A DNA stretch of 64,000 nucleotides from Azospirillum brasilense (GTDB lineage Bacteria; Pseudomonadota; Alphaproteobacteria; Azospirillales; Azospirillaceae). Under the pieces are notes generated by a model. That model searched no databases. It saw only the letters and a list, made by a program, of their open reading frames with translations, and had not been told where the DNA came from. Position 1 is the stretch's first letter; every line of letters starts with the position of its first letter. The stretch is taken from assembly GCF_005222205.1 (NCBI RefSeq), contig NZ_CP032348.1, forward strand, positions 1 to 64,000, written 5' to 3'. The position numbers were made by a program, and so were the translations under genes. Of this stretch, positions 2,205-24,285 are shown one piece after another.

Positions 2205-3092
2205 ATGACGCGGAAGATCGCCTTGGGCTCCGCCCCGTTGCAGGAGCCCCGCGAACCGACCACCGAAGACGTTGCCGACACCAACGCTGCCGACAACAAC
2301 TCCGCCGACCGCCGGCCCCTCGCCGACCGCGTCCTGGCCTTGCTGGACGCGGTGGCCGGGGCGGGGCAGCCGATGGCCGTCAAGGACATCGCCGAGAAGC
2401 TGGCCCTGCCGAAGCCGACCGCGCACCGGCTGATCGCCATGCTGGAGGAACGCGGCTTCCTCGCCCGCCCGATCGACGGCCGGCTGGTGACCGTCGGCCC
2501 GAAACTGCGCACCCTGGCGCTCAACACGCTGCGCAGCTCCCTGGGCCAGGCGCCGTCGCACGCCCGGCTGCGGGCGCTCAGCCTGGAGCTGGGGGAGACC
2601 TGCAACATCGGCGTGCTGGAAGGCGGCGACGTCGTCTATCTCGACCGCGTCGAGGTCGAAGGCTGGCCGCTGCGGCTGGAATTCGGCGTCGGTTCGCGGG
2701 TGCCGCTGCACTGCACGGCGATGGGCAAGCTGTTCCTCGCCTTCCTGCCGGAGCTGCCGCGGCGGCGCCTGCTGGATTGCCTGCCGCTGCCCCGGATGGC
2801 GGCGGCGACGCTGTGCGACCCGGCGCTGTTCCGCGCCGAGCTGGAGCGCATCGCCGCCTGCGGTCACTCCTTCGATGACGAGGAATACATGCCGGGCGTC
2901 TTCTGCGCGGCGGTGCCGATCCGCGACGGCGCGGGACGGATGATCGCCGCCCTGGCGGTGCAGGCGCCGAAAGTCCGGCTGTCGCGGGAATCGGTGGCCG
3001 ACCGCCTGCCGGTCCTGCACCGCGCCGCAAGCGACATGGCCCGCGCGCTGGGCATCGACGCCGCCCCGGCCGAGCCGGCCCTCTCACCCTAA
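2205..3092 (+). CDS. IclR-family transcriptional regulator (SauR-like)
   Basis: The protein has 295 residues. An N-terminal winged helix (LALPKPTAHRLIAMLEERG, about residues 65-85) is followed by the IclR effector domain, with LELGETCNIGVLEGGDVVYLD and the CTAMGKLFLA block. ATG 2205 was chosen over an upstream in-frame start at 2157 because GGGGAGG stands just before it. It lies 14 bases ahead of the phosphate acetyltransferase gene and heads a rightward run that ends with xsc. In Cupriavidus the sulfoacetate genes are controlled by an IclR protein, SauR, so the same role here is a reasonable inference. A broken paralogue stands directly upstream. Confidence 0.85.
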   Translation: MTRKIALGSAPLQEPREPTTEDVADTNAADNNSADRRPLADRVLALLDAVAGAGQPMAVKDIAEKLALPKPTAHRLIAMLEERGFLARPIDGRLVTVGPKLRTLALNTLRSSLGQAPSHARLRALSLELGETCNIGVLEGGDVVYLDRVEVEGWPLRLEFGVGSRVPLHCTAMGKLFLAFLPELPRRRLLDCLPLPRMAAATLCDPALFRAELERIAACGHSFDDEEYMPGVFCAAVPIRDGAGRMIAALAVQAPKVRLSRESVADRLPVLHRAASDMARALGIDAAPAEPALSP

Positions 3093-3106
3093 GGAAGACG
3101 GACGCC

Positions 3107-4102
3107 ATGGCAAGGACGCTTGAGACGACCGCCGCCGGATGCCCGGCCCGGCTGATGGCGCGCAGCGCCGCCCTGGAGCCGGTTCCAACGGCGGTGGTCG
3201 CCGCAGGGTCGCCGGTTGCGCTGGAAAGCGCGCGGCGCGCCACCGATCTCGGCCTCATCGAGCCGGTGCTGGTCGGCGATCCGGCGGCCATCGCCGACAG
3301 CGCCCGCCGGATCGGCTGGACGCTCCACGGCGCGTGCGTGGTTCCGGCACGCGACGACGCGGCGGCGGCGCGGATCGCGGTGGCGCTCGCCCGCTCCGGC
3401 GACGTCGGCGCGCTGATGAAGGGGCACATCCACACCGACACGCTGATGCTCGCGGCCCTCGACCCGAAATGCGGGCTGCGCATCGGGCGCCGCTTCACCC
3501 ACGCCTTCCACATGACGCTGCCGGGGTCGAGCCGCGAGCTGGTCATCACCGACGCGGCGATCAACGTGGCGCCGTCGCTGACGACCCGGCTGGACATCAT
3601 CCGCAACGCGGTGGAGCTGTGGCGGCTGGTCGGCGGCAGCGACCCGCGCGTGGCGCTGCTGTCCTGCACCGAGGAGGTGACCGAGCGCGTGCCCTCCAGC
3701 ATGGACGCCGACCGGCTGACCCGCCTGTGCCGGCAGGAGGTGCCGGGCGCGACGGTGTTCGGGCCGCTGGCGCTCGACCTCGCGGTGTCCGCCGAGGCGG
3801 CGCGGATCAAGAACCTGACCCACCCCTGCGCCGGAGCCGCCGACATCCTGGTGGTGCCGAACATCGAGACCGGCAACGCCCTGTTCAAGGCGCTGGTGCA
3901 TTTCCTGGACGCGGTCGCCGCGGGCATCGTGCTCGGCGCTGCGGTGCCGATCGTCCTCACCTCGCGTGCCGACCCGCCGGCGGCCCGCATCGCCGCCGCC
4001 GCCATCGCCCAGATCGTCGCCGGGCGCCGCTCCGCCACGCCGGGCCCGCCCTATCCCGCCACCGCAGCCAAGGGAGGCGCCGCACCCGGCCTGCACGCCT
4101 GA
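3107..4102 (+). CDS. pta: Phosphate acetyltransferase (PTA/PTB family)
   Basis: The product has 331 residues, the short form of the phosphate acetyl/butyryltransferase family. Recognisable blocks are GALMKGHIHTDTLMLAAL, RRFTHAFHMTLPG, VAPSLTTRLDIIRNAVEL, FGPLALDLAVS and ADILVVPNIETGNALFKAL. Pta enzymes exchange phosphate and CoA between acetyl phosphate and acetyl-CoA in the cytoplasm. Xsc, at the end of this gene run, makes acetyl phosphate, so this gene supplies the step into central metabolism, as is usual for xsc clusters. The start ATG 3107 follows AAGGAAG. A phosphate butyryltransferase role cannot be excluded from sequence alone. Confidence 0.88.
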   Translation: MARTLETTAAGCPARLMARSAALEPVPTAVVAAGSPVALESARRATDLGLIEPVLVGDPAAIADSARRIGWTLHGACVVPARDDAAAARIAVALARSGDVGALMKGHIHTDTLMLAALDPKCGLRIGRRFTHAFHMTLPGSSRELVITDAAINVAPSLTTRLDIIRNAVELWRLVGGSDPRVALLSCTEEVTERVPSSMDADRLTRLCRQEVPGATVFGPLALDLAVSAEAARIKNLTHPCAGAADILVVPNIETGNALFKALVHFLDAVAAGIVLGAAVPIVLTSRADPPAARIAAAAIAQIVAGRRSATPGPPYPATAAKGGAAPGLHA

Positions 4103-4134
4103 CGGTCAAAAATAAATCCTGGGAGGGAATGCAA

Positions 4135-5124
4135 ATGCTCCGCAACGCCTTGACGCTCACCGCGGCGGTGGCCGCGCTGCTGACACCCGTCCTGTCATCC
4201 GCCCCCGCGCGCGCCGACGACTACCCATCGCGCCCCATCGAGGTCATCGCGACCTTCGGGGCCGGCGGCGGCGCCGATTTGATGGCGCGCCAGTTCGCCC
4301 GCCTCGCCGAACCGCATCTCCACGTCGCCATGCCCGTCGTCAACGTATCCGGGGCGTCGGGCAACGCCGGCCTGACGCGGGTCCTGACCAACCCGGCCGA
4401 CGGCTACACGGTCGGCACGCTGATCGCGCTGTCCGTCTCCTCCTGGGCGTCGGGCCTGGGCACGGCGAAGCCGGACAATTTCGTCTATGTGGCGATGATG
4501 CAGAACTCGCCGTCGATGCTCTACGTCTCGAAGAACAGCCCCTTCAAGACCTACGAGGAGTTCGCCGCCCACGCCAAGGCCAACCCCGGCAAGCTGCGCG
4601 TCGCCACCTCCGGCTACGGCACGCAGGACGACATCACGCTGAAGTATCTGGGAAGCCAGGGCGTGCCGGTGACCAACGTCCCCTTCGCCCGCCCCTCGGA
4701 GCGCTACGCCTCGCCCATCGGCGGCCACACCGACGCGATCTACGAGGAGCCGGGCGACGTCGCCCAGTTCCTGAAATCCGGCGACCTGCGCCCGATCGTC
4801 GTGTTCGACAAGCAGCGCCACCCCTCCTTCCCCGACGTGCCCGCCTCGGCGGAGCTGGGGCTGGACATCGGCGACCTGCCCAACTTCCGCACGCTGGCGG
4901 TGCCCGCCAGCACGCCGCCGGAGCGCGTGCAGAAGCTGCACGAGGCCGCCGCCAAGGTGCTGGCGAGCCCGGAATGGAAGGCCTTCTGCGCCGACACCTT
5001 CACCTGCGTCGACACGCTGGTGACGCCGGACCAGGCCAAGGAGGAGGTGAAGGCCTTCTACGAGACGGTGAGGGGCTATCTGGACCGCTTCGCCACCAAG
5101 ACCGTCGGCCAGACACCGGGCTGA
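4135..5124 (+). CDS. Tripartite tricarboxylate-type transporter substrate-binding protein (TctC family)
   Basis: The protein has 329 residues with a clear Sec signal peptide ending near residue 24 (SSAPARA then DDYPSRPIEV). The mature part shows the family opening YPSRPIEVIATFGAGGGADLMARQ and the NPADGYTVG block. ATG 4135 has a GGGAGG site eight bases upstream; the in-frame ATG 4129 is too close to it. It is followed by TctB- and TctA-type genes, so it should be the periplasmic receptor that hands a carboxylated substrate to the membrane pair. The operon makes sulfoacetate the likely ligand, but this family binds many organic acids and specificity cannot be read from sequence. Confidence 0.9.
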   Translation: MLRNALTLTAAVAALLTPVLSSAPARADDYPSRPIEVIATFGAGGGADLMARQFARLAEPHLHVAMPVVNVSGASGNAGLTRVLTNPADGYTVGTLIALSVSSWASGLGTAKPDNFVYVAMMQNSPSMLYVSKNSPFKTYEEFAAHAKANPGKLRVATSGYGTQDDITLKYLGSQGVPVTNVPFARPSERYASPIGGHTDAIYEEPGDVAQFLKSGDLRPIVVFDKQRHPSFPDVPASAELGLDIGDLPNFRTLAVPASTPPERVQKLHEAAAKVLASPEWKAFCADTFTCVDTLVTPDQAKEEVKAFYETVRGYLDRFATKTVGQTPG

Positions 5125-5176
5125 GTCCGGTTCCAAATCCGCCCCACCCGTTTCATCGCTCCTCAGGGAGGGAACC

Positions 5177-5713
5177 GTGACTCCCCTGTCCCACGGTCTT
5201 CGCCGGCTGGCGACACCCGCGGCCCTGCTCACCGGGTCGCTTCTTCTCTCGCAACACATCGTGCGCGACAGCACCATGATCGCCGGCCTGCCGGACCCGG
5301 TGGGACCGACGGGATGGCCCCGGCTGATGCTGGGCGCGGTCGGGCTGTGCGCCCTGATCTGGATCGCCAAGGAACTCCTGGCGCTGCGGCGCGCGGTCCA
5401 CCAGCAGAAACCGGTCGACGAGGAATACGAAGGCTACGCCAATGGCCGGGCCATGATCGGGCTGGGGCTGGTCGTCCTCTACGGCCTCGCCCTGCCGCAG
5501 CTCGGCTTTCCGGTCGCCACCCTCGCCTTCGTCGCTTTGTGGTGCGTCATCGGCGGCATCCGGCGCCCGCTGACGCTGGCTCTGGTCACCGGCATCGGCT
5601 GCGTGGTGCTGCTCTACGTCTTCGTCCTCCTCGCCCAGATGCCGCTGAACCGCGGCCATGGCGTCTTCGACGACTTCACCGTCGCGCTTTACCGCCTGCT
5701 CGGCATCTACTGA
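5177..5713 (+). CDS. TctB-family small membrane subunit
   Basis: The protein has 178 residues with about four hydrophobic segments (near residues 13-30, 48-68, 93-125 and 130-155), the pattern of the small membrane subunit of tripartite tricarboxylate transporters. It starts with GTG 5177 behind GGGAGGGA. It sits between the receptor and the large subunit in the usual C-B-A order and is needed for transporter assembly in the inner membrane. Confidence 0.85.
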   Translation: MTPLSHGLRRLATPAALLTGSLLLSQHIVRDSTMIAGLPDPVGPTGWPRLMLGAVGLCALIWIAKELLALRRAVHQQKPVDEEYEGYANGRAMIGLGLVVLYGLALPQLGFPVATLAFVALWCVIGGIRRPLTLALVTGIGCVVLLYVFVLLAQMPLNRGHGVFDDFTVALYRLLGIY

Positions 5714-5737
5714 GCCGGCCACCGGAAGGATCGTCCC

Positions 5738-7276: not shown

Positions 7277-7322
7277 CCGTCCGAACAAACGAACGAACCT
7301 TCAGGGAGAGAGACAAGCAACC

Positions 7323-8750
7323 ATGGACAACATCATGCTCGACCGAACGCCGGCCAGCGCCGACCAGGAGGCCGTCGCCGCCCTCGTCGCCCACGCCCGC
7401 GCCGCCCAGCGCGCCTTCGCCGACGCGACGCAGGAGCGGGTGGACGACGCCGTCGCCGCGCTCGCCTGGGCCATCTACGAACCGGGCCGCGCCCGCGCCC
7501 TGGCGGAGCTGGCGGTGGCCGACACCGGCCTCGGCAACGTCGCGGACAAGGTCATCAAGAACCAGCGCAAGACCTTCGGGACGCTGCGCGACCTGATGCG
7601 GGTGCGCACCGTCGGCGTGATCGAGGAGGACACCGCCAAGGGCATCGTCAAAATCGCCAAGCCGCTGGGCGTCGTCGGCGCCGTCACCCCCTCCACCAAC
7701 CCGGCGGCCACGCCGGTCAACAAGGCGATGATGGCCGTTAAGGGCCGCAACGCCATCATCATCGCCCCCTCCCCCATGGGCTCCGCCGCCACCGGCCGCA
7801 CGGTCGAGCTGATGCGGGCCGAGCTGGCGCGCATCGGCGCGCCGGAGGATCTCGTGCAGATGATCCCCACCCCGATCACCAAGGGCCTGACCCAGGCGCT
7901 GATGGAGGCGGTCGACCTTGTCGTCGTCACCGGCTCCCAGGACAACGTACGCCGCGCCTATTCCAGCGGCACCCCGGCCATCGGCGTCGGGGCCGGCAAC
8001 GTTCCGGTCATCGTGGACGAGAGCGCCGATCTGGCCGAGGCGGCGCGCAAGATCGCCGCGTCGAAGACCTTCGACAACGCCACCTCCTGCTCGTCGGAGA
8101 ACGCGCTCGTCGTCCTCGATTCCGTCTACGACGCGACCATCGCGGCGCTGGAAGAGGCCGGCGCCTATCTCTGCACGGCGGAGGAGCGGGAGCGCGTGCA
8201 ATCCCGCCTGTGGGAGAACGGCAAGCTGAACCGCAAGCTGATCGCCAAGGACGCCGCCGTCCTGGCCGAGGCGTTCGAGCTGGCGCCCAAGGCGCGCGAG
8301 GCCCGCTTCTTCCTGGTGGAGGAATCCGGCGTCGGCAAGGCGCACCCCTTCTCCGGCGAGAAGCTGTCGCTGGTGCTGGCCGTCTACCGGGTGCCGGACT
8401 TCGACGCGGCGGTCGATCAGGTCCGCAAGATCCTCGACCACCAGGGGCGCGGCCATTCCTGCGGCATCCACACCAAGGACGAGGCCCACGCCAAACGGCT
8501 GGCCGACGAGCTTGACGTGGTGCGCGTGCTGGTCAACTTCGCCCACACCTTCGGCAACGGCGGCGGCTTCGACAGCGGGCTGAACTTCACCCTCTCCATG
8601 GGCTGCGGGAGCTGGCAGAAGAACTCCATCTCCGAGAACCTGAGCTGGAAGCACTTCGTCAACATCACCCATCTCGTCCGCCCGATCCCGGAGGACAAGC
8701 CGAGCGAAGAGGCCCTGTTCGGCCCCTTCTGGTCCCGCCACGGACGCTGA
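7323..8750 (+). CDS. sauS: CoA-acylating aldehyde dehydrogenase, probable sulfoacetaldehyde dehydrogenase
   Basis: The protein has 475 residues of the short acylating aldehyde dehydrogenase type (EutE/SauS-like). The nucleophile is Cys256 in the NATSCSSENALVV block, and GVVGAVTPSTNPAATPVNKAM marks the cofactor-binding half. This family interconverts an acyl-CoA and the free aldehyde with NAD(P)H. In the sulfoacetate pathway SauS reduces sulfoacetyl-CoA to sulfoacetaldehyde, the Xsc substrate. Placement between a transporter, a CoA ligase pair and xsc supports that role. Plain acetaldehyde dehydrogenase activity is the alternative; nothing else in the operon calls for it. Confidence 0.8.
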   Translation: MDNIMLDRTPASADQEAVAALVAHARAAQRAFADATQERVDDAVAALAWAIYEPGRARALAELAVADTGLGNVADKVIKNQRKTFGTLRDLMRVRTVGVIEEDTAKGIVKIAKPLGVVGAVTPSTNPAATPVNKAMMAVKGRNAIIIAPSPMGSAATGRTVELMRAELARIGAPEDLVQMIPTPITKGLTQALMEAVDLVVVTGSQDNVRRAYSSGTPAIGVGAGNVPVIVDESADLAEAARKIAASKTFDNATSCSSENALVVLDSVYDATIAALEEAGAYLCTAEERERVQSRLWENGKLNRKLIAKDAAVLAEAFELAPKAREARFFLVEESGVGKAHPFSGEKLSLVLAVYRVPDFDAAVDQVRKILDHQGRGHSCGIHTKDEAHAKRLADELDVVRVLVNFAHTFGNGGGFDSGLNFTLSMGCGSWQKNSISENLSWKHFVNITHLVRPIPEDKPSEEALFGPFWSRHGR

Positions 8751-8761
8751 CGGAGGCGACG

Positions 8762-9886
8762 ATGAACTTCGAGGAACAGGCCGGAAAATCCGTGCTCGCC
8801 CGCGCCGGGGTGAGCGTCCCGCAGGGGCGCCTCTGCGCCAGCGCGCAGGAGGCCGAAGCCGCCGCCCGCGCCATCGGGCCGGTGGTGGTCAAGGCGCAGG
8901 TGCCGACCGGCAAGCGCGGCAAGTCGGGCGGCGTCAAGCTGGCCGCCACGCCGGAGGAGGCCGCAGCATCCGCGCAGGCCATCCTGGGCATGGAGATCGG
9001 CGGCTTCCCGGTCGCCCGCGTCCTGGTCGAGGAGCAGGCGGCCATCGCCCGCGAATTCTACGCCGCGGTGCTGAACGACCCAGCCAGCCGCAGCCCGCTC
9101 GTGCTGTTCTCCACCGAGGGCGGCATGGACATCGAGGAGGTCGCGGCGACCCGGCCCGAATCCCTGCGCCGCATGGCGGTGGACATCCGCAAGGGCTTCG
9201 GCCCGGCGGACGCGCGCCGCCTGCTGCTTGGGCTGGATCTCGGCGAGGCCGCGGTGCCGGTGGCGGCGATGCTGGTCGATCTCTACCGCGTCTACCGCCA
9301 GCACGACGCCGAGCTGCTGGAAATCAACCCGTTGGCCCTGCTCGCCGACGGCCGCGTCGTGCCGCTGGACTGCAAGCTGACGGTGGACGATGCCGCCCTC
9401 TACCGGCAGGCGGACATCGCCGAACTGGGCGCCAAGGAGCCGCTGTCGGCGCTGGAGGAGCGCGGGCGGGCGCTCGACCTCAAATTTATCGAGCTGGAGG
9501 GCAACGTCGGCGTTCTGGCGAACGGCGCCGGCCTGACCATGACGACCATGGACGTGGTCAGCCACGCCGGCGGGCGCCCCGCCAACTTCCTGGAGATCGG
9601 CGGCGAGGCCTACACCAAGGGGACGGAGGCGCTGGACCTCGTGCTGTCCAACCCCGGCGTCAAAAGCCTCGTCGTCAATTTCTGCGGCGCCTTCGCCCGC
9701 ACCGACGTGATGGCCGGCGGCGTGATCCAGGCCTGGAAGACGCTGAACCCCACCATCCCCGTCTTCTTCTCCATCCACGGCACCGGCGAGGACGAGGCCG
9801 TGCGCATGGTGCGCGAGGAGCTGGGGATCGAACCCTACGACCGGATGGAAGACGCCATTTCGGCAGCCGTGGAGGCCGCGCGATGA
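8762..9886 (+). CDS. sauP: Succinyl-CoA-synthetase-beta-like CoA ligase subunit (sulfoacetate-CoA ligase candidate)
   Basis: The protein has 374 residues with an N-terminal ATP-grasp domain (GPVVVKAQVPTGKRGKSGGVKLA; metal-binding ELLEINPLALL near residue 180) and a C-terminal CoA-ligase half (FLEIGGEAYTKGTEALDLVL). It is the nucleotide-binding beta subunit of an ADP-forming acyl-CoA synthetase. Its stop overlaps the start of the alpha subunit by four bases (ATGA), so the two are translationally coupled. In some sulfoacetate clusters the AMP-forming SauT ligase is replaced by a succinyl-CoA-ligase-like pair, as I recall named SauPQ. This pair fits, since no TCA-cycle genes accompany it. Malate-CoA or succinate-CoA ligase remains possible. 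Confidence 0.72.
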   Translation: MNFEEQAGKSVLARAGVSVPQGRLCASAQEAEAAARAIGPVVVKAQVPTGKRGKSGGVKLAATPEEAAASAQAILGMEIGGFPVARVLVEEQAAIAREFYAAVLNDPASRSPLVLFSTEGGMDIEEVAATRPESLRRMAVDIRKGFGPADARRLLLGLDLGEAAVPVAAMLVDLYRVYRQHDAELLEINPLALLADGRVVPLDCKLTVDDAALYRQADIAELGAKEPLSALEERGRALDLKFIELEGNVGVLANGAGLTMTTMDVVSHAGGRPANFLEIGGEAYTKGTEALDLVLSNPGVKSLVVNFCGAFARTDVMAGGVIQAWKTLNPTIPVFFSIHGTGEDEAVRMVREELGIEPYDRMEDAISAAVEAAR

Positions 9887-10791
9887 TCGTACGCAAGAGC
9901 GACCGGGTCCTGGTGCAGGGCATCACCGGCAAGCAGGGCACCTTCTGGACCGAGCAGATGCAGGCCTACGGCACCACCGTGGTCGGCGGCGTGAACCCGA
10001 AGAAGGCCGGGCAGAACCATTGCGGCGTGCCCATCTTCGCCACCGCGAAGGAGGCCATGGCGAACGGCGGCTTCGACGTGTCGGTGATGTTCATCCCGCC
10101 CGCCGCCGCCAAAGCCGCCGCCATCGACGCCATCGAGGCGGGGGCGAAGACCGTCGTCTGCCTGACCGAGCACATCCCGTCGCACGACGTGATGGAGATG
10201 CACGCCGCAGCGGCGGAGCACGGCACCCGCATCATCGGGCCGAACACCGCCGGCATCGTGACGCCGGGCGAGGGCTTCGTCGGCATCATGCCCGCCTTCA
10301 ACCCGCGCGTCTTCCAGCCGGGCCGGGTCGGCGTCATCTCGCGCAGCGGCAGCCTGGGCACGCTGGTCTGCCTGAACCTCGTGCGCGGCGGCCATGGCCA
10401 GTCGGCCTTCCTCGGCATCGGCGGCGACCCGATGATCGGCACAACGACCAAGGACGCGCTGGCCGCCCTGATCGACGATCCGGGCACCGACGCCATCGCG
10501 CTCGTCGGCGAGATCGGCGGCAGCATGGAGGAGGAGGCGGCGGAGCTGGTGGCGAAGACGGACAAGCCCGTCGTCTCCTTCATCGCCGGCCGTGCCTCCC
10601 CGCCGGGCAAGAAGATGGGCCACGCCGGCGCCATCGTGACCGGCGACCGCGGCAGCTACGCCTCCAAGCGCGGCGCGCTGGAACGCGCCGGGGCCGTGGT
10701 GGTGGACGTGCCCGGCGACCTGCCGGCGGCCCTCGACGCGCTGATGGCTGAGGCCGCGAAACGGTCGGGCGCGCAACGGCTCGCGGACTGA
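9883..10791 (+). CDS. sauQ: Succinyl-CoA-synthetase-alpha-like CoA ligase subunit (sulfoacetate-CoA ligase candidate)
   Basis: The protein has 302 residues. The CoA-binding Rossmann part begins VLVQGITGKQGTFWTEQM, and the phospho-accepting histidine is His247 in GHAGAIVTGDRG, almost the same position as in E. coli SucD. The chemistry is ADP-forming: substrate acid, CoA and ATP give acyl-CoA through a phosphohistidine. It overlaps the beta subunit by four bases. A gap of 117 bases with a small GC-rich palindrome separates it from soeA, the widest gap inside the run. Confidence 0.72.
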   Translation: MIVRKSDRVLVQGITGKQGTFWTEQMQAYGTTVVGGVNPKKAGQNHCGVPIFATAKEAMANGGFDVSVMFIPPAAAKAAAIDAIEAGAKTVVCLTEHIPSHDVMEMHAAAAEHGTRIIGPNTAGIVTPGEGFVGIMPAFNPRVFQPGRVGVISRSGSLGTLVCLNLVRGGHGQSAFLGIGGDPMIGTTTKDALAALIDDPGTDAIALVGEIGGSMEEEAAELVAKTDKPVVSFIAGRASPPGKKMGHAGAIVTGDRGSYASKRGALERAGAVVVDVPGDLPAALDALMAEAAKRSGAQRLAD

Positions 10792-10826
10792 CTGCGCGGC
10801 AGCACTTTCGAAGAACGGCACGGCAG

Positions 10827-10888
10827 CACAGCCCCCCTCTCCTGGCCCCCTCTCCCGGCCCCCGCCGGGAGAGAACGGGGGAGGCATT
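10827..10888. repeat. Short GC-rich palindromic block
   Basis: CCCCCTCTCC and CCCCCTCTCCCGG blocks face CCGGGAGAGA and GGGGGAGG just before soeA. They resemble the ends of the element at 907-1050. They could fold in the transcript and attenuate or separate expression of sauQ and soeA. Confidence 0.45.
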
Positions 10889-10908
10889 CCGGAAGGGAAC
10901 GGAACAGG

Positions 10909-13905
10909 ATGGCGAAGATCGACGACGTCGGCGGCCAGCGCGCGCGCGGGTTCGCCTTTACCCAGGGCTTCCAGCGAAGGAGCGGGCCGGCGGCGCCCGA
11001 GGACGCGCGCGGCTGGCTCGACCGCTACCAGTCGCCGCGCGAGGAACTGAACCCCTCGCCGACCGTCTCCGACACGGTCAAATACACCACCTGCTACATG
11101 TGCGCCTGCCGCTGCGGCATCAAAGTGCACATCAAGGACGGCCAGCTCCGCTTCATCGAGGGGAACAAGGACCATCCGGTGAACCACGGCGTGATCTGCG
11201 CCAAGGGGTCCGCCGGCATCATGACCCAGAACTCCCCGGCCAAGCTGCGCAAGCCCCTGCTGCGCACCGGGGAGCGGGGCACCGGCGAGTTCCGTGAGAT
11301 CGAGTGGGACGAGGCGCTGACCATCCTGACCGAGCGCCTGTCCAAGATCCGCGACAGCGACCCCTGCAAGCTCGCCTTCTTCACCGGACGCGACCAGAGC
11401 CAGTCGCTGACCGGCTTCTGGGCGGCGCAGTTCGGCACGCCCAACTTCGCGGCGCACGGCGGCTTCTGCTCCGTCAACATGGCGGCGGCGGGCATGTACA
11501 CGCTGGGCGGCAGCTTCTGGGAGTTCGGGGAGCCGGACTGGGACCACACTCGCTACCTGCTGCTGTTCGGCGTGGCCGAGGACCATGACAGCAACCCGAT
11601 CAAGATCGGCCTGTCGAAGATGAAGGCGCGCGGCGCCAAGATCGTCTCCGTCAACCCGATCAAGACCGGCTATTCCGCCATCGCCGACGAGTGGGTCGGC
11701 ATCCGTCCGGGCAGCGACGGGCTGTTCGTCTTCGCCCTGATCCACGAGCTTCTGCGCGCCGACCGCATCGACGCCGAGTATCTCGTCCGCTACACCAACG
11801 CCCCCTGGCTGGTCATCCAGGACCCCGGCGCCCCCGACGACGGCCTGTTCGCCCGCGACGCCGACGGCGCCCCGCTGGCCTGGGACGCGGTGGAGCAGCG
11901 CACCGTTCCCGCCACGCAAGCCGGCATCCGCCCGGCGCTCGTCGGCGCCGTCACCCTGCCGGACGGGCGGCGGGCCGTGCCCTCCTTCCATCTGCTGGCC
12001 GAACGCTACCTCGACCCGCAGCACGCGCCGGAGGCGGTGGCCGAGCGCTGCGGCGTCCCCGCCGACACCATCCGCCGCATCGCCGCCGAGATGGCGCACC
12101 TCGCCTTCCAGGAGACGCTGACCATCGAGCAGCCCTGGACCGACTGGGCCGGGCGGCGCCACGAGCGGATGGTCGGGCGGCCCATTGCCATGCACGCCAT
12201 GCGCGGCATCTCCGCCCATTCCAACGGCTTCCACACCTGCCGGGCCATCCACATCCTGCAAATCCTGCTGGGCACCATCGACGTGCCGGGCGGCTGGCGC
12301 TACAAGTCGCCCTACCCCCGCCCCGCCCCGCCGGGTCCCAAACCCGCCGGCAAGCGCGGCGAGACCGGCCCCGGCAAGGCCATCCACGGGATGCCGCTCG
12401 GCTACCCCATGGGACCGGAGGACCTGCTGGTCGGCGAGGACGGGCAGCCGCTGCGTATCGATAAGGCCTTCAGCTGGGACGCGCCGCTGTCGGTGCACGG
12501 CCTGATGCACATGGTGGTCGCCAACGCCTGGGAGGGCGACCCGTACCGCGTCGACACGCTGTTCATGTACATGGCCAACATGGCCTGGAACTCGTCGATG
12601 AACACGTCCGAGACGATGCGGATGCTGTCCGACAAGGACCCGGACAGCGGCGAGTACCGCATCCCCTTCATCGTCTATTGCGACGCCTACGCCTCGGAGA
12701 TGGTGGCCTACGCCGACCTCGTGCTGGCCGACACCACCTACCTGGAGCGGTGGGACTGCATCTCGCTGCTCGACCGCCCGATCGGCAGCGCGCACGGCCC
12801 CGGCGATTCCATCCGCCAGCCGGTGCTGACCCCCGACCGTGACGTGCGGCCCTTCCAGGACGTGCTGATCGAGCTGGGCGCGCGGCTCGGCCTGCCGGCC
12901 TTCGTCCGGGAGGACGGCAGCCCGCGCTACCCCGGCGGCTATCCCGACTACATGACCAACCACGAGCGCAAGCCCGGCATCGGCCCGCTGGCCGGCTGGC
13001 GCGGCGCCGACGGGAAGGACGCCGGCAAGGGCGCGCCCAACCCGGACCAGCTCGACCGCTACGTCCGCAACGGCTGCTTCTGGCATTTCGAGCTGCCGCC
13101 GGAGCAGCACTATTTCAAGCACGCCAACCAAGCCTATCTGGAAACCGCCACCCGCATGGGCTTCCTCGACAAGCCGGAGCCGGTGATCCTCCAGCTCTAT
13201 GTCGAGCCGCTCCAGAAATTCCGCCTTGCCGCGCGCGGGCACGGCGCGGTGGTGCCGCCCGCCGACAAGCGGCCGCGGGTGGAGACCTACTTCGACCCCC
13301 TGCCCTTCTGGTATCCGCCGCTGGAGGAGGAGGGGCTGGACGTGAGCGCCTTCCCGCTGCACGCGGTCACCCAGCGCCCGATGCCCATGTACCATTCCTG
13401 GGGCTCGCAGAACGCCTGGCTGCGGCAGATCCTGGCGCGCAACAGCCTCTACATCGCGCGCTCCACCGCGGAGGCGCTCGGCCTCGCCGACGGCGACTGG
13501 GCCTGGGTGACCAGCCCGACCGGGCGCATCCGGGTGCCGGTCCGTCTGATGGATGGGGTGGAGGCCGGGACGGTGTGGACCTGGAACGCCATCGGCAAGC
13601 GCTCCGGCGCCTGGAACCTGTCCACCGACGCGCCGGAGGGGACCAAGGGCTTCCTGCTCAACCACCTGATCTCGGAACTGCTGCCGGAGCGCAACGGCTA
13701 CCGCCACGCCAACGCCGACCCGGTGACCGGGCAGGCCGCCTGGTACGACCTGCGCGTCCGTGTCGAGAAGGCGTCGCCGAAGGAGCGCGCCGAGACCATG
13801 CCGCGCTTCCCCGCCCAGGCCATGCCGCCGGGCGTCGAGCCGCCGCCCGCCATCCTGCGCACCGGCGCCGCCTTCCGTCCCACATCTCGGGGAGTGCGGT
13901 CATGA
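10909..13905 (+). CDS. soeA: Molybdopterin oxidoreductase, cytoplasmic sulfite dehydrogenase catalytic subunit
   Basis: The protein has 998 residues of the DMSO-reductase superfamily. An N-terminal 4Fe-4S site (Cys62, Cys65, Cys69 in CYMCACRC, and the later Cys in VICAKG) precedes the molybdopterin domains and a C-terminal dinucleotide-binding domain (SLYIARSTAEALGLADGDWAWV). There is no twin-arginine signal, so it should act in the cytoplasm, as SoeA does. With the next two genes it forms a SoeABC-type complex oxidising sulfite to sulfate. Sulfite is the product of Xsc at the end of the same run. Its stop overlaps the soeB start (ATGA). Another reductase of this large family is possible but less consistent with context. 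Confidence 0.82.
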   Translation: MAKIDDVGGQRARGFAFTQGFQRRSGPAAPEDARGWLDRYQSPREELNPSPTVSDTVKYTTCYMCACRCGIKVHIKDGQLRFIEGNKDHPVNHGVICAKGSAGIMTQNSPAKLRKPLLRTGERGTGEFREIEWDEALTILTERLSKIRDSDPCKLAFFTGRDQSQSLTGFWAAQFGTPNFAAHGGFCSVNMAAAGMYTLGGSFWEFGEPDWDHTRYLLLFGVAEDHDSNPIKIGLSKMKARGAKIVSVNPIKTGYSAIADEWVGIRPGSDGLFVFALIHELLRADRIDAEYLVRYTNAPWLVIQDPGAPDDGLFARDADGAPLAWDAVEQRTVPATQAGIRPALVGAVTLPDGRRAVPSFHLLAERYLDPQHAPEAVAERCGVPADTIRRIAAEMAHLAFQETLTIEQPWTDWAGRRHERMVGRPIAMHAMRGISAHSNGFHTCRAIHILQILLGTIDVPGGWRYKSPYPRPAPPGPKPAGKRGETGPGKAIHGMPLGYPMGPEDLLVGEDGQPLRIDKAFSWDAPLSVHGLMHMVVANAWEGDPYRVDTLFMYMANMAWNSSMNTSETMRMLSDKDPDSGEYRIPFIVYCDAYASEMVAYADLVLADTTYLERWDCISLLDRPIGSAHGPGDSIRQPVLTPDRDVRPFQDVLIELGARLGLPAFVREDGSPRYPGGYPDYMTNHERKPGIGPLAGWRGADGKDAGKGAPNPDQLDRYVRNGCFWHFELPPEQHYFKHANQAYLETATRMGFLDKPEPVILQLYVEPLQKFRLAARGHGAVVPPADKRPRVETYFDPLPFWYPPLEEEGLDVSAFPLHAVTQRPMPMYHSWGSQNAWLRQILARNSLYIARSTAEALGLADGDWAWVTSPTGRIRVPVRLMDGVEAGTVWTWNAIGKRSGAWNLSTDAPEGTKGFLLNHLISELLPERNGYRHANADPVTGQAAWYDLRVRVEKASPKERAETMPRFPAQAMPPGVEPPPAILRTGAAFRPTSRGVRS

Positions 13906-14657
13906 CGAGCCTTCCCAACCGCGAGCCCGGCGCCCCCCGGCTGGGGCTGGTCATCGACCTCGACACCTGCGTCGGCTGCCACGCCTGCGCGGTGGCCTGC
14001 AAGCAGTGGAACGACGGCGGCCACATGGCGCCGCTGACCGATACCGACGCCTACGGCGCCGGCCCGGACGGGGTGTGGTTCAACCGTATCCACAGCTTCG
14101 AGGCCGGAACCGGTGACAGCGGCTGCGGGTCGCGCACCACCAACTTCCCGCGCTCCTGCCTGCATTGCGAACAGCCGGCCTGCGTGACCGTCTGCCCGAC
14201 CGGCGCCTCCTACAAGCGGGCCGAGGACGGCATCGTGCTGGTCAACGAGGATTTGTGCATCGGCTGCAAGCTCTGCTCCTGGGCCTGCCCCTACGGCGCG
14301 CGGGAGTTCGACCAGGACGTCGGCGTGATGAAGAAATGCACGCTGTGCATCGACCGCATCCACAACGAGACGCTGGCGGAGACGGAGCGGGTGCCGGCCT
14401 GCGTCATGGTCTGCCCGACCTCCGCCCGGCATTTCGGCGACCTCGCCGACCCGTCCTCCGCCGTCTCGAAGCTGGTGGCGGAGCGCGGCGGCTACGACCT
14501 GATGCCGGAGCTGGGCTACGAGCCGACCAACAAGTACCTGCCGCCCCGCCCCCGCCCCACCCTGGCGCTCGACGAGCGCGTCACCAAGGACAGCGCCAAC
14601 GACGATTTGCCGCTCCACGGCCTGCTGAAATGGGCCGACCGCATCCTGGCGCGCTGA
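13902..14657 (+). CDS. soeB: Four-cluster ferredoxin subunit of SoeABC
   Basis: The protein has 251 residues with four cysteine groups for 4Fe-4S clusters: CVGCHACAVACKQ, CLHCEQPACVTVCP, CIGCKLCSWACPYG, and CTLCIDR with the later PACVMVCP. This is the DmsB/NrfC-type electron-transfer subunit carrying electrons from the molybdenum centre to the membrane anchor. The start ATG 13902 overlaps the soeA stop; the longer open frame upstream lies inside soeA and was discarded. No secretion signal is present, in line with a cytoplasmic complex. Confidence 0.87.
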   Translation: MTSLPNREPGAPRLGLVIDLDTCVGCHACAVACKQWNDGGHMAPLTDTDAYGAGPDGVWFNRIHSFEAGTGDSGCGSRTTNFPRSCLHCEQPACVTVCPTGASYKRAEDGIVLVNEDLCIGCKLCSWACPYGAREFDQDVGVMKKCTLCIDRIHNETLAETERVPACVMVCPTSARHFGDLADPSSAVSKLVAERGGYDLMPELGYEPTNKYLPPRPRPTLALDERVTKDSANDDLPLHGLLKWADRILAR

Positions 14658-14670
14658 GGGAGGGAATCCG

Positions 14671-15630
14671 ATGCATCCGGCCTTCTCCATCATCTTCTTC
14701 ACCAGCGCGGCGGGCGCCGGCTACGGCCTGCTCGCCCTGCTCGGCCTGCTGGCGCCCTTCGGCCTGCTGCCGGCGAGTCCGCTGTTCGGCCTCGCCGCCC
14801 TCGCCCTCGCCTTGGGGCTGGTGGTGGCCGGGCTGCTGTCCTCGCTGGCCCATCTCGGCCGGCCGGAGCGGGCATGGCGGGCGCTGTCGCAGTGGCGCAG
14901 CTCCTGGCTGTCGCGCGAAGGCGTCGCGGCGGTCGCCACCTTCCTGCCGGCGGGCGTCTTCGCCATCGCTTGGCTCTTCTTGGGGAGCGGTGTGGCGGGG
15001 GTCGCCGGCTGGATCACCGCGGCGATGGCGGCGGTCACCGTCTATTGCACGGCGATGATCTACGCTTCGCTGAAGCCCATCCGCCAGTGGGCCAACCCGT
15101 GGGTGCCGCGCACCTATCTGGCGCTGTCGCTGATGACCGGGGCGCTGCTGCTGAACGCGCTGCTGGGCGTGGCGGGGCAGGCGGCGGGCTGGTCCTCCCT
15201 GCTGGCCTTGGCGTCGGTGGGGCTGGCCTGGGCGGCCAAGGAGGGGCACTGGCGGCACTGCGCCACCGCCCACCCCGTCAGCACGGCGGAGACGGCGACC
15301 GGCCTCGGTCACAATGGATTGGGTCACATCGGGCGGGTCCGCCTGCTCGACGCCCCGCACAGCGAGGACAATTACCTGCTCAAGGAAATGGGCTTCCGCG
15401 TCGGGCGCCGCCACGCCGTCCGCCTGCGCCTCATCACCCGCGTCGCCGCCTTCGCCCTGCCGGCGGCGCTGAGCCTCAGCGCGCTGGTCGCCGGTCCCGG
15501 CGCCCTGTCCGGCACCCTGGCGCTGCTGGCCGTTGCCGCCGCCGCGCTGGGGGTGATCGCCGAGCGCTGGCTCTTCTTCGCCGAGGCGAAGCACACCGTG
15601 ACCCTCTTCTACGGCGCCGGGGAAGCCTGA
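14671..15630 (+). CDS. soeC: DmsC-family membrane anchor of SoeABC
   Basis: The protein has 319 residues and about eight hydrophobic helices. It shows the DmsC-type motif SSLAHLGRPERAWRALSQWR and SWLSREG after helix two. It anchors the complex at the cytoplasmic face and passes electrons to quinone. A good GAGGGAGG site precedes ATG 14671, 13 bases after soeB. It completes the sulfite-oxidising complex of the operon. Confidence 0.87.
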   Translation: MHPAFSIIFFTSAAGAGYGLLALLGLLAPFGLLPASPLFGLAALALALGLVVAGLLSSLAHLGRPERAWRALSQWRSSWLSREGVAAVATFLPAGVFAIAWLFLGSGVAGVAGWITAAMAAVTVYCTAMIYASLKPIRQWANPWVPRTYLALSLMTGALLLNALLGVAGQAAGWSSLLALASVGLAWAAKEGHWRHCATAHPVSTAETATGLGHNGLGHIGRVRLLDAPHSEDNYLLKEMGFRVGRRHAVRLRLITRVAAFALPAALSLSALVAGPGALSGTLALLAVAAAALGVIAERWLFFAEAKHTVTLFYGAGEA

Positions 15631-15682
15631 GCCCGCCACTCTGGCCCCGCCTCTTCACCCCTCAATCGGGAAAGGAGCAGAC

Positions 15683-16051
15683 ATGCCGCAGGACCACACC
15701 GATCACGGCTCCGCCCTGGCCCTTCTCATGACCCGCGCCAAGGCGATGGACGCCCGGAGCCTCTACATCTGCGGCTCGCCCTCCTGCCCTCGCGTCGGCT
15801 TCCGCTCCGGTCCGGGCATCGTCTACGAGCCGCTGTCCGCCGGCCTCGCGGGGCACCTTCTCGACCGCTTCGCGGTGGACGGCCACGGCCTGAGCCAAGG
15901 GCTGCTCGTCTGGAGCGGGCGCCATTACCGCTGGTTCGCCATGCCGATGCCAGAGGGGGCCGACGGCTACGCCCCCCTGATCGCCGTGCACCGACCCGCC
16001 ATTTGTCCCGGCCCCGGCGAGCGGGCCATGCCGCGCGTGATCGCCGGCTGA
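15683..16051 (+). CDS. Unknown small protein between soeC and xsc
   Basis: The protein has 122 residues and I do not recognise the family. AAGGAG stands seven bases before ATG 15683. It has no signal peptide and no membrane segment. Visible features are a paired-cysteine stretch (LYICGSPSCPRVGF, about residues 28-41), a LVWSGRHYRWFAMPMP aromatic patch in the second half and a third cysteine near the C-terminus. It sits in the same direction between soeC (52 bases) and xsc (47 bases). A role in sulfite handling or in assembling the operon enzymes is only a guess from position. Codon use matches its neighbours, and it is very unlikely to be a chance frame. Confidence 0.7.
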   Translation: MPQDHTDHGSALALLMTRAKAMDARSLYICGSPSCPRVGFRSGPGIVYEPLSAGLAGHLLDRFAVDGHGLSQGLLVWSGRHYRWFAMPMPEGADGYAPLIAVHRPAICPGPGERAMPRVIAG

Positions 16052-16098
16052 CCGCCCCGCCGCCCTACTCCCCAATCCATGCAACGAGGATGCGCACC

Positions 16099-17874
16099 AT
16101 GAAAATGACCACCGAGGAAGCGTTCGTGAAGGTCCTTCAGATGCACGGCATCCGGCACGCCTTCGGGATCATCGGTTCGGCCATGATGCCGGTCTCCGAC
16201 CTCTTCCCCAAGGCCGGCATCCGGTTCTGGGACTGCGCGCACGAGACCAACGCCGCCCTGATCTGCGACGGCTACAGCCGGGTCACCGGCGAGATGGCCA
16301 TGGCCATCGCCCAGAACGGCCCCGGCGTGACCGGCTTCGTCACCTCCATCAAGACCGCCTACTGGAACCACACGCCGATGCTGCTGGTGACGCCGCAGGC
16401 CGCCAACAAGACCATCGGCCAGGGCGGTTTCCAGGAGGTCGAGCAGATGGCCATGTTCCGGGAGATGGTCTGCTATCAGGAGGAGGTGCGCGACCCCAGC
16501 CGCATGGCCGAGGTGCTGAACCGCGTCATCGAGAAGGCGTGGCGCGGCTGCGCCCCGGCGCAGATCAACGTGCCGCGCGATTTCTGGACCCAGGTCATCG
16601 ACGTCGAGCTGCCGCAGATCGTCCGTCTGGAGCGCCCGGCGGGCGGGCGGCAGGCCATCGCCGAAGCGGCCCGCCTGTTGTCGGAGGCGAAGTTCCCGGT
16701 CATCCTGAACGGCGCCGGAGTGGTGATCGGCGGGGCCATTCCGGACAGCATCGCGCTGGCGGAGCGGCTGGACGCGCCGGTCTGCTGCGGCTACCAGCAC
16801 AATGACGCCTTCCCCGGCAGCCACCCGCTGTCGGTCGGGCCGCTCGGCTACAACGGGTCCAAGGCGGCCATGGAGCTGATCGCCAAGGCCGACGTCGTGC
16901 TGGCGCTCGGCACCCGGCTCAACCCCTTCTCGACCCTGCCCGGCTACGGCATCGACTATTGGCCGAAGGACGCGCGGATCATTCAGGTGGACATCAACCC
17001 CGACCGCATCGGCCTGACCAAGAAGGTGTCGGTCGGCATCTGTGGCGACGCCCGCCAAGTCGCGCAGCAGATCCTGGCGCAACTCGCCCCCGGCGCCGGG
17101 GACGCGGGCCGGCTGGAACGCCGCGCGCTGATCCACCAGACCAAGTCGGCGTGGCTGCAGCTCCTGTCCTCGCTCGACCATGAGGAGGACGATCCCGGAA
17201 CGAGTTGGAACGCCGAGGCGCGCGAGCGCGAGTCCGACCGCATGTCGCCGCGGCAGGCGTGGCGCGCCATCCAGGCCGCCTTGCCGGCGGACGCCATCCT
17301 CTCCACCGACATCGGCAACAACTGCGCCATCGGCAACGCCTACCCCACCTTCGAGGAGGGGCGGAAGTATCTGGCGCCGGGCATGTTCGGCCCCTGCGGC
17401 TACGGTTTCCCGTCGATCGTCGGGGCGAAGATCGGCTGCCCGAACACGCCGGTTGTGGGATTCGCCGGTGACGGCGCCTTCGGCATCTCGATGAACGAGA
17501 TGTCCTCCATCGGGCGCGAGGGATGGCCGGCGGTCACCATGGTGATCTTCCGGAACTTCCAGTGGGGGGCGGAGAAGCGCAACACGACGCTGTGGTTCGA
17601 CAACAACTTCGTCGGCACGGAGCTGAACCCCAAGCTCAGCTACGCCAAGGTGGCCGAGGGTTGCGGCCTGAAGGGCGTCACCGCGCGCACCCAGGACGAG
17701 GTCACGGCAGCCCTGCGCCAAGCCATCGAGGACCAGGGGCGCGGCATCACCACCTTCGTCGAGGTGATCCTGAACCAGGAGCTGGGCGAGCCCTTCCGCC
17801 GCGACGCCATGAAGAAGCCGGTCGCGGTCGCCGGCATCGACCCGTCGGACATGCGCCCGCAGCAGGCCGTGTAA
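16099..17874 (+). CDS. xsc: Sulfoacetaldehyde acetyltransferase
   Basis: The protein has 591 residues, typical of Xsc, a thiamine-diphosphate enzyme cleaving sulfoacetaldehyde with phosphate into acetyl phosphate and sulfite. Family features include the opening MKMTTEEAFVKVLQMHGIRH, AFGIIGSAMMPVSDLFP, WDCAHETNAALICDGYSR with the glutamate that activates the cofactor, and the diphosphate-binding stretch VGFAGDGAFGISMNEM through FRNFQWGAEKRNTTLWFDNNF. ATG 16099 has CGAGG about nine bases upstream; the in-frame ATG 16090 is too close to it. No taurine dehydrogenase or taurine aminotransferase gene is nearby, so sulfoacetate is the likely source of substrate. Confidence 0.93.
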   Translation: MKMTTEEAFVKVLQMHGIRHAFGIIGSAMMPVSDLFPKAGIRFWDCAHETNAALICDGYSRVTGEMAMAIAQNGPGVTGFVTSIKTAYWNHTPMLLVTPQAANKTIGQGGFQEVEQMAMFREMVCYQEEVRDPSRMAEVLNRVIEKAWRGCAPAQINVPRDFWTQVIDVELPQIVRLERPAGGRQAIAEAARLLSEAKFPVILNGAGVVIGGAIPDSIALAERLDAPVCCGYQHNDAFPGSHPLSVGPLGYNGSKAAMELIAKADVVLALGTRLNPFSTLPGYGIDYWPKDARIIQVDINPDRIGLTKKVSVGICGDARQVAQQILAQLAPGAGDAGRLERRALIHQTKSAWLQLLSSLDHEEDDPGTSWNAEARERESDRMSPRQAWRAIQAALPADAILSTDIGNNCAIGNAYPTFEEGRKYLAPGMFGPCGYGFPSIVGAKIGCPNTPVVGFAGDGAFGISMNEMSSIGREGWPAVTMVIFRNFQWGAEKRNTTLWFDNNFVGTELNPKLSYAKVAEGCGLKGVTARTQDEVTAALRQAIEDQGRGITTFVEVILNQELGEPFRRDAMKKPVAVAGIDPSDMRPQQAV

Positions 17875-24054: not shown

Positions 24055-24285
24055 ATGGACGAGGACGCGATGTGGAGCGCGGTGACGCGCCGGGACCGGG
24101 ACGGTGACGGGCGCTTCGTCTACGCGGTGCGCACCACCGGCGTCTATTGCCGGCCATCCTGTCCATCGCGACGGGCCAAGCGAGAAAACGTCGCGTTCCA
24201 CCCCGATGCTGCGGCGGCGGAGGCGGCGGGCTTCCGCCCCTGCAAGCGCTGCCGCCCCAACGCGCCGCCCTCCACGCTCACATGA
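24055..24285 (+). CDS. Stand-alone Ada metal-binding domain protein
   Basis: The protein has 76 residues and matches the N-terminal zinc domain of Ada: WSAVTRRDRDGDGRFVYAVRTTGVYCRPSCPSR, then GFRPCKRCRPN with all four zinc cysteines. Full Ada proteins run to about 350 residues with an AraC-type and a methyltransferase domain. Here the frame ends right after the zinc domain, eight bases into the end of the convergent YeiH gene. GGAGG precedes the ATG by five bases, so it appears to be expressed. It may be a truncated remnant or a small methyl-phosphotriester or zinc-binding protein in its own right. Confidence 0.75.
   Translation: MDEDAMWSAVTRRDRDGDGRFVYAVRTTGVYCRPSCPSRRAKRENVAFHPDAAAAEAAGFRPCKRCRPNAPPSTLT

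What the first reader, a model, noticed from the sequence alone, without database searches (positions are those of the whole stretch)
2205..17874. Self-contained sulfoacetate pathway with its own cytoplasmic sulfite dehydrogenase
One rightward run holds IclR regulator, Pta, TctCBA transporter, acylating aldehyde dehydrogenase, two-subunit CoA ligase, SoeABC, a small unknown protein and Xsc. Seen: gene order, tight spacing and family motifs, with no taurine or isethionate entry enzymes. Known: Xsc gives acetyl phosphate and sulfite, Pta makes acetyl-CoA, SoeABC oxidises sulfite. Inferred: the substrate is sulfoacetate and the TctCBA system imports it. Having import, activation, desulfonation and sulfite oxidation in one module on a probable megaplasmid is unusual and would be portable.
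Basis: partly seen in the sequence, partly recalled or inferred. Interest (0 to 1): 0.78.

Follow-up and report, generated by a model that had tools for sequence, protein, structure and literature searches.

The report
Complete sulfoacetate-degradation operon in Azospirillum
A soil bacterium carries, in one run of genes on a large plasmid, a predicted complete kit to import the small sulfur compound sulfoacetate, cut its sulfur off and oxidise that sulfur to sulfate; every step is of a known kind, and the way the parts are combined is the new point.

Summary
In detail: 13 codirectional genes at 2205-17874 encode IclR, a Pta-family protein, TctCBA, acylating sulfoacetaldehyde dehydrogenase (SauS, 808 bits, cut-off 600), a succinyl-CoA-synthetase-like pair (SauCD), a SoeABC-like molybdoenzyme, a 122-aa orphan and Xsc (990 bits, cut-off 676). 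The sulfoacetate reading is supported by these matches, by conserved changes at presumed substrate-site positions of SauCD, by the lack of another good Xsc match in the genome, and by gene order: the whole run recurs in 9 of 10 fetched same-genus loci, and variants occur in Indioceanicola, Magnetospirillum and two MAGs. Two claims need toning down. Parts and several pairings are known (SauSCD with a tripartite transporter; soeCBA beside pta in Ruegeria), and Paraburkholderia phymatum has a differently built plasmid cluster. "Portable" is unsupported: six related plasmids are typed non-mobilizable. New: the Azospirillum Xsc belongs to another clade than that of the Magnetospirillum-type operon (AU p 5.7e-6), so Xsc was exchanged or the modules were assembled separately; the orphan is lineage-specific and under purifying selection. 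Window 1-16008 recurs at the contig's other end, probably an untrimmed overlap. No experiment exists.

The parts
1186..1990 (+). first IclR-family regulator gene (frame broken in the window, continuous in the copy at the other contig end); membership of the module uncertain
   Evidence: tandem IclR genes also in L031 and L032
2205..3092 (+). IclR-family regulator, 14 bases ahead of pta; presumed sau regulator
   Evidence: Pfam IclR_C and HTH_IclR over cut-off; gap
3107..4102 (+). Pta/Ptb-family phosphotransacylase; presumed acetyl phosphate to acetyl-CoA
   Evidence: PRK08190 322.9 over 282; PF01515
4135..5124 (+). TctC periplasmic binding protein (sulfoacetate binding inferred)
   Evidence: PF03401; one N-terminal hydrophobic segment; kin to solved binding proteins of this family
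5177..5713 (+). TctB small membrane subunit
   Evidence: PF07331
5738..7276 (+). TctA large membrane subunit
   Evidence: PF01970 471.2 bits; 12 hydrophobic segments
7323..8750 (+). SauS, CoA-acylating sulfoacetaldehyde dehydrogenase
   Evidence: NF047625 808.2 over 600; Cys256 invariant in 13 of 13 aligned rows
8762..9886 (+). SauC, beta subunit of presumed ADP-forming sulfoacetate-CoA ligase
   Evidence: PRK00696 371.2 over 370; NFCGAFAR in place of own SucC NIFGGIMR
9883..10791 (+). SauD, alpha subunit of the same ligase; GHAGA motif kept
   Evidence: TIGR01019 326.5, below cut-off 353.2, and PRK05678 328.3, below 336; SRSGSLGTL in place of own SucD SRSGTLTYE
10909..13905 (+). SoeA-like molybdopterin subunit; no twin-arginine pattern found, no hydrophobic segment
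   Evidence: Pfam; Cys187 aligns with a Cys of PsrA 2vpw
13902..14657 (+). SoeB-like 4Fe-4S subunit
   Evidence: PF13247; 17 Cys, no hydrophobic segment
14671..15630 (+). SoeC-like membrane anchor (DmsC family)
   Evidence: PF04976 61.9 over 22.3; 7 hydrophobic segments
15683..16051 (+). 122-aa orphan protein, function unknown, under purifying selection
   Evidence: no Pfam or NCBIfam hit; dN below dS in 11 of 11 comparisons; distribution
16099..17874 (+). Xsc, sulfoacetaldehyde acetyltransferase (clade of taurine-cluster Xsc)
   Evidence: TIGR03457 990.3 over 676.4; tree
24281..25327 (-). sulfate-exporter-like protein of the family that sits beside xsc in taurine clusters; link to the module only suggestive
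   Evidence: PF03601; its Az39 ortholog is 33.8% identical to the YeiH/TauZ-type protein beside S. meliloti xsc

Best explanation
A plasmid-borne operon for complete aerobic use of sulfoacetate. Proposed steps: TctCBA imports sulfoacetate (inferred). SauCD makes sulfoacetyl-CoA at the cost of one ATP (inferred from family, neighbours and changed residues). SauS reduces it to sulfoacetaldehyde with NAD(P)H (curated family match). Xsc with phosphate splits this to acetyl phosphate and sulfite (curated family match; no other good Xsc match in the genome). The Pta-family enzyme makes acetyl-CoA (inferred). SoeABC on the cytoplasmic side oxidises sulfite to sulfate and passes two electrons to the quinone pool (inferred), removing a toxic product where it forms and recovering some of the reducing power spent at SauS. 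The IclR protein probably switches the operon (inferred). The 122-aa protein may help SoeABC or Xsc; its role is unknown.
For: SauS and Xsc over curated cut-offs. SauC motif NFCGAFAR in 68 of 71 rows and Thr at the SucD Tyr column in 58 of 61 SauD rows, against the host's own SucCD. The sulfonate ligase HpfYZ is described as altered at a Tyr and a GIV site of succinyl-CoA synthetase (passages of PMC11489063); that these are the same positions is my reading of the alignments. Gene order in 9 of 10 fetched same-genus loci, in Indioceanicola and, with xsc upstream, in Magnetospirillum UT-4 and two MAGs. SoeA and SoeB show no export pattern or hydrophobic segment. A sulfate-permease-family gene follows soeC in one relative and an SLC13-type permease in another.
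Against: No experiment. SoeA was not compared with a characterised SoeA; its best NCBIfam hit is PhsA, far below cut-off (227 of 694). SoeC matches DmsC, and NrfD only below cut-off, whereas PMC6335251 calls SoeC NrfD/PsrC-like (passage). Pta is not of the classical type. An omega-aminotransferase-type gene and an unspecified aminotransferase (L216, L215) leave open that taurine can also feed this Xsc. In 70 of 80 named SauS loci no SoeA was found in the stretch read (only 35 of 80 stretches reach 20 kb). In same-genus G028 the run is incomplete and Xsc lies on another contig.
Confidence: 0.85

Rival explanations
1. Xsc, Pta and SoeABC form a general desulfonation core that also serves taurine or isethionate converted elsewhere in the cell; sulfoacetate is only one of several inputs.
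For: There is no other good Xsc match in the genome, and this Xsc falls in the clade of taurine-cluster Xsc. An omega-aminotransferase-type gene (L216) and an unspecified aminotransferase (L215) exist, and an omega-amino acid aminotransferase is said to replace Tpa in one symbiont (passage of PMC12625764).
Against: The best TauY-like protein in the genome is only 33% identical, against 64% between S. meliloti and P. phymatum TauY. The operon holds no tauABC, tpa or tauXY. Tpa had no reference sequence here and isethionate dehydrogenase was not sought.
Confidence: 0.25
2. SauS and SauCD run in the oxidising direction, making ATP and excreting sulfoacetate, as SqwD/SqwKL do in fermenting bacteria.
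For: The same enzyme types run that way in a sulfoglycolytic variant (passages of PMC12890257 and PMC11489063).
Against: Xsc and SoeABC in the same operon would compete for sulfoacetaldehyde; the transporter has a periplasmic binding protein, typical of import; the 13 genes include none for sulfoquinovose use.
Confidence: 0.05
3. The SoeABC-like complex is not a sulfite dehydrogenase but another molybdoenzyme (for example a sulfur or thiosulfate reductase relative), next to the sau genes for other reasons.
For: No curated SoeA model was reached; the best hits are PhsA and PsrA relatives; SoeC is DmsC-like.
Against: It recurs beside sau or xsc genes in several lineages; no export pattern found; SoeA is listed as cytoplasmic with a Cys ligand (passage of PMC10100899), and Cys187 fits.
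Confidence: 0.1

Closest known systems
Bilophila wadsworthia sauSCD with the putative SauXYZ tripartite transporter, and the sponge symbiont OTU3 cluster
   Same: SauS, two-subunit ADP-forming ligase, tripartite tricarboxylate transporter (passages of PMC12625764 and PMC12890257)
   Different: Bilophila reduces sulfoacetaldehyde to isethionate and cleaves it with a glycyl radical enzyme (passage); here Xsc, Pta and SoeABC lie in the same operon
Cupriavidus necator sauRSTU (paper not held; described from PMC12625764 passages and recall)
   Same: SauS route through sulfoacetyl-CoA to sulfoacetaldehyde
   Different: SauT is a single ligase gene and SauU an MFS transporter there; here SauCD and TctCBA
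Ruegeria pomeroyi soeCBA (SPO3557-3559) beside pta (SPO3560) and near tauR (SPO3562)
   Same: SoeABC genes have locus numbers next to a Pta gene of a sulfonate pathway (passages of PMC4334477; xsc as SPO3561 is recalled)
   Different: near a taurine regulator; no SauSCD mentioned in the passages seen
Paraburkholderia phymatum pBPHY01 cluster (L200)
   Same: SauS over cut-off, xsc, pta and soeABC within about 20 kb of a plasmid
   Different: AMP-binding ligase and MFS transporter beside sauS instead of SauCD and TctCBA; the other Xsc clade; genes on both strands
Magnetospirillum sp. UT-4 and MAGs nN3bin14, nJC1bin3
   Same: xsc-pta-tctCBA-sauSCD-soeABC in one run
   Different: xsc first rather than last and of the other clade; no 122-aa orphan found by tblastn

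Membership tests
SauS (NF047625) | score over curated cut-off of the equivalog model | tested here: met
   808.2 over 600
SauS (NF047625) | CoA-acylating activity on sulfoacetaldehyde | not testable with these tools
   no assay; catalytic-type Cys256 conserved
Xsc (TIGR03457) | score over curated cut-off | tested here: met
   990.3 over 676.4
SauCD ADP-forming sulfoacetate-CoA ligase | two-subunit succinyl-CoA-synthetase family with phosphohistidine motif | tested here: met
   GHAGA kept in 61 of 61 rows; that this His is the phosphorylated one is recalled
SauCD ADP-forming sulfoacetate-CoA ligase | substrate site altered relative to succinyl-CoA synthetase | tested here: met
   SucD Tyr column holds Thr in 58 of 61 SauD rows; SauC NFCGAFAR in 68 of 71; that these are substrate positions follows PMC11489063 passages
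SauCD ADP-forming sulfoacetate-CoA ligase | direct sequence similarity to characterised Bilophila SauCD | not tested
   reference sequences not obtained; paper not held
SoeABC | three genes: molybdopterin subunit, Fe-S subunit, membrane anchor | tested here: met
SoeABC | cytoplasmic catalytic subunit without export signal | tested here: met
   no twin-arginine motif in the first 60 residues by pattern, no hydrophobic segment
SoeABC | NrfD/PsrC-like membrane subunit | tested here: inconclusive
   DmsC 61.9 over 22.3; NrfD 16.3 under 25.8
SoeABC | clusters with characterised SoeA in a tree | not tested
   no characterised SoeA sequence at hand
SoeABC | sulfite:quinone oxidoreductase activity | not testable with these tools
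   -
Tripartite tricarboxylate transporter | TctC, TctB and TctA domains in adjacent genes | tested here: met
Phosphotransacetylase | score over the classical Pta model TIGR00651 | tested here: not met
   58.4 of 311.2; passes PRK08190 instead
Mobile element (portable module) | transfer genes, or mobilizable typing of the plasmids that carry it | tested here: not met
   the 6 plasmid records that hold the orphan gene, the same six that cover at least 80% of 2000-22000, are all typed non-mobilizable; the window's own plasmid was not typed and flanking transposases were not searched

The most novel reading that the evidence does not exclude
Complete sulfoacetate-to-sulfate modules have been assembled more than once from interchangeable parts, and in Azospirillum the desulfonating enzyme itself was replaced by a taurine-type Xsc that came together with a new 122-aa accessory protein, which acts as a cytoplasmic partner of the sulfite-forming or sulfite-oxidising step.
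Probability: 0.2. Interest if true: 0.6.

Novelty: new variant of a known kind. Interest (0 to 1): 0.42.

Why it matters
Sulfoacetate is formed by bacteria from taurine and from sulfoquinovose, the plant sulfolipid sugar (passages of PMC12625764 and PMC12890257). A root-associated genus with a one-operon route from sulfoacetate to acetyl-CoA and sulfate would link plant sulfonates to sulfate in the rhizosphere. The operon puts the ADP-forming ligase, described for an anaerobe, into a pathway with Xsc and ties sulfite oxidation to its source. It gives a clean prediction (sulfoacetate growth in A. brasilense-group strains). In the listings of my searches I saw no paper that reports it; those listings were partly capped (40 of 99 shown; 11: 4 of 4; 37: 4 of 4; 38: 20 of 130; 60: 15 of 40; 88: 10 of 15; 103: 10 of 66; 104: 2 of 2), and the two key sulfoacetate papers are not held.

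Tried and rejected
Tandem second copy of the operon: rejected; the match at C4:695501 lies in a terminal repeat with 0 substitutions and 35 gap openings.

Genome G370 as a counter-example (SauSCD-SoeABC but no Xsc match at 1e-80): not upheld; 62-residue Xsc N-terminal pieces (94 bits) sit at the ends of two contigs, so the gene is probably cut by the assembly. No whole Xsc was seen there.

The divergent Xsc of the Magnetospirillum-type operon as a different enzyme: rejected for the two rows tested; both pass TIGR03457 (872 and 878 over 676).

A simple story in which only Xsc was exchanged in a module that is otherwise one lineage: not secured. The quick SauS tree puts Azospirillum and Indioceanicola nearer to Xanthobacteraceae rows (SH-aLRT 85) than to Magnetospirillum.

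The 122-aa protein: no family found. Among 72,556 plasmid records it matches 6, all Azospirillum. Among 385 class genomes it matches its own and one weak stretch with four internal stops. Its structure was not predicted because the machine was busy.

Taurine entry in the host: best TauY match 33%. None of the 7 class III aminotransferases found at E up to 1e-30 is named taurine-pyruvate aminotransferase, but I do not know whether the library holds such a model. Isethionate dehydrogenase was not sought.

Xsc identities printed came from a query started one base off and are not used; replace them. Alignment A1 had three rows on the wrong strand and was replaced by A2.
Full report
What is there. 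The window is the first 64,000 bases of contig C4 (704,115 bases) of a 7.2-Mb genome in 6 contigs. DNA of 2000-22000 is about 95% identical to six plasmids of 640-700 kb from Azospirillum argentinense, A. brasilense and A. sp. TSH58. Thirteen codirectional genes run from 2205 to 17874 with gaps of -4 to 117 bases: iclR, pta-like, tctC, tctB, tctA, sauS, sauC, sauD, soeA, soeB, soeC, a 122-aa orphan, xsc. G+C of the run (70.4%) does not differ from the window after it (69.9%).

Assembly caveat. Window 1-16008 recurs at C4:688132-704115 with 0 substitutions and 35 gap openings, best read as an untrimmed overlap of a circular replicon. The repeat copy of soeA is frame-broken while the window copy is whole; conversely the first iclR (1186-1990) is broken in the window and continuous in the repeat. 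Both are most simply read as sequencing indels.

Families. SauS and Xsc pass curated equivalog cut-offs (808.2 over 600; 990.3 over 676.4). SauC just passes the SucC model PRK00696 (371.2 over 370), and SauD falls below both SucD models, as expected for relatives with another substrate. I compared them with the host's own SucCD. Among 60 SauD relatives plus the window, the column of the SucD tyrosine in SRSGTLTYE holds Thr in 58 of 61. Among 70 SauC relatives plus the window, NIFGGIMR of SucC reads NFCGAFAR in 68 of 71. Rows came from 83 loci and were kept only if they covered more than 85% of the query without a stop. PMC11489063 (passages) names a Tyr and a GIV site of succinyl-CoA synthetase as changed in the sulfonate ligase HpfYZ (to His and GIN). 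That these are the columns I scored is my reading; the residues here differ from both. The Pta protein is of the PRK08190 type, not the classical one.

Sulfite oxidation. SoeA has Fe-S and molybdopterin domains, no twin-arginine pattern in its first 60 residues and no hydrophobic segment; SoeB has none either; SoeC has seven and a DmsC domain. SoeA Cys187 aligns with a cysteine of the chain 2vpw, a polysulfide/thiosulfate reductase; that this Cys is the molybdenum ligand there is recalled. PMC10100899 (passages) lists SoeA as cytoplasmic with a Cys ligand. I had no characterised SoeA to compare with, so the assignment rests on anatomy and neighbours.

Who else has it. By the SauS model, 12 of 61 genomes are over the cut-off; within the genus 11 of 37, own included. 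Of 385 class genomes, own included, 24 are over it. Of ten further same-genus loci fetched, nine show the whole order, orphan included. The tenth, G028, has tctA-sauSCD-soeABC at 64-77% identity, tctB at 44%, about 6 kb between tctC and tctB, and its Xsc (90%) on another contig. Of the 80 best named SauS loci (364 candidates were confirmed), 66 hold sauC and sauD, 17 an Xsc at least 70% identical to this one, 11 an Xsc of 40-70%, and 10 hold sauCD, soeABC, xsc, pta and tctA together: seven Azospirillum-type, Magnetospirillum sp. UT-4 and two alphaproteobacterial MAGs. Only 35 of 80 stretches reach 20 kb, so these are lower bounds. Indioceanicola profundi has the operon on a plasmid with xsc divergent, 1.6 kb upstream. 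Two class genomes join sauS to soeABC in other layouts (L068, L072).

Two kinds of Xsc. A tree of 43 Xsc rows splits into two clades with full support. Azospirillum, G028 and Indioceanicola group with the S. meliloti taurine-cluster Xsc; Magnetospirillum and the MAGs are in the other clade. Holding these operon owners together costs 380 log-likelihood units (AU p 5.7e-6; the group was named after the tree was seen). Against the window, SauS, SoeA, SauD and TctA of Magnetospirillum and the MAGs are 69-77% identical, SauC 69-70%, TctC 65-67%, SoeC 57-61%, Pta 55-65%, TctB 43-44%, and Xsc 47-48%, whereas Xsc from many unrelated loci is near 80%. The nine genes pta-tctCBA-sauSCD-soeAB(C) keep one order in both types, only xsc differs in place. 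This favours an exchange of Xsc in a shared module. Against it, the quick SauS tree puts Azospirillum plus Indioceanicola with Xanthobacteraceae rows (85) and Magnetospirillum with G028 (97); the quick SoeA tree joins Azospirillum, Indioceanicola and Magnetospirillum with support 85. So exchange of Xsc, or of more genes, or separate assembly from related parts all remain possible. Direction cannot be told from unrooted trees.

A parallel module. Paraburkholderia phymatum pBPHY01 holds two xsc, pta, soeCBA and SauS (818 over 600) with an AMP-binding protein and an MFS transporter beside sauS, within about 20 kb. That looks like the SauT/SauU type of C. necator joined to Xsc and SoeABC. So a complete sulfoacetate-to-sulfate gene set on a plasmid exists in at least two designs.

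Other inputs to Xsc. The genome's next Xsc-like matches are 23-32% identical. The best TauY match is 33%. The seven class III aminotransferases carry other names, yet L216 (omega-aminotransferase model AptA) and L215 (an unspecified aminotransferase) could in principle act on taurine. The operon itself holds no taurine or isethionate entry gene.

The orphan. The 122-aa gene lies between soeC and xsc in the nine loci and the seven (partly the same strains), has dN below dS in 11 of 11 comparisons, and is not found by tblastn in the Indioceanicola, G028, Magnetospirillum and MAG loci. Its start differs in two relatives (L022, L020), where an ATG lies slightly upstream. Function unknown; my guess is a helper of SoeABC or Xsc.

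Mobility. The module ends about 265 bases from parB and parA of the replicon (18140-20006), and repA lies at 26338-27297. The six related plasmids are typed non-mobilizable. Nothing here supports present portability, although the trees suggest exchange over longer times.

Verdict. It is a new arrangement of known enzymes, best called a new variant of a known kind.

Noticed in passing
window 1-16008 and C4:688132-704115: Terminal repeat of the contig, identical apart from 35 gap openings; probably an untrimmed circular overlap; frames are broken in one copy or the other.
   Followed up: yes
window 24281-27297: Sulfate-exporter-family gene (PF03601), LysR gene and replication initiator repA side by side, also in two related plasmids; the exporter family is the one beside xsc in taurine clusters.
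   Followed up: partly
L031 1-4722 (Az39) and L032 1-7167 (TSH58), upstream of the operon in related plasmids: Branched-chain-type ABC transporter, L-2-amino-thiazoline-4-carboxylate hydrolase, cysteine-synthase-like, Rid and Lrp genes: looks like a cysteine-analogue pathway next to the sulfonate operon.
   Followed up: no
L200 11823-13556 and 18496-20229: Two Xsc genes about 5 kb apart in Paraburkholderia phymatum pBPHY01, each 47% identical to the window's.
   Followed up: no
L029 with L094 (G028, contig C105): About 6 kb separate tctC from tctB in this Azospirillum, as if something was inserted into the operon.
   Followed up: partly
C1:2897878-2898720 and C1:2003714-2004556 (L103, L104): Two very similar succinyl-CoA synthetase alpha genes, each with a sucC-like frame ahead, in one genome.
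   Followed up: no
window 41109-42722 (-) and 50161-51750 (+): Two further thiamine-diphosphate-type enzymes, 26-28% identical to Xsc.
   Followed up: no
L033 17932-19173: A gephyrin-like molybdotransferase gene close to the Indioceanicola operon, fitting a molybdoenzyme in the pathway.
   Followed up: no
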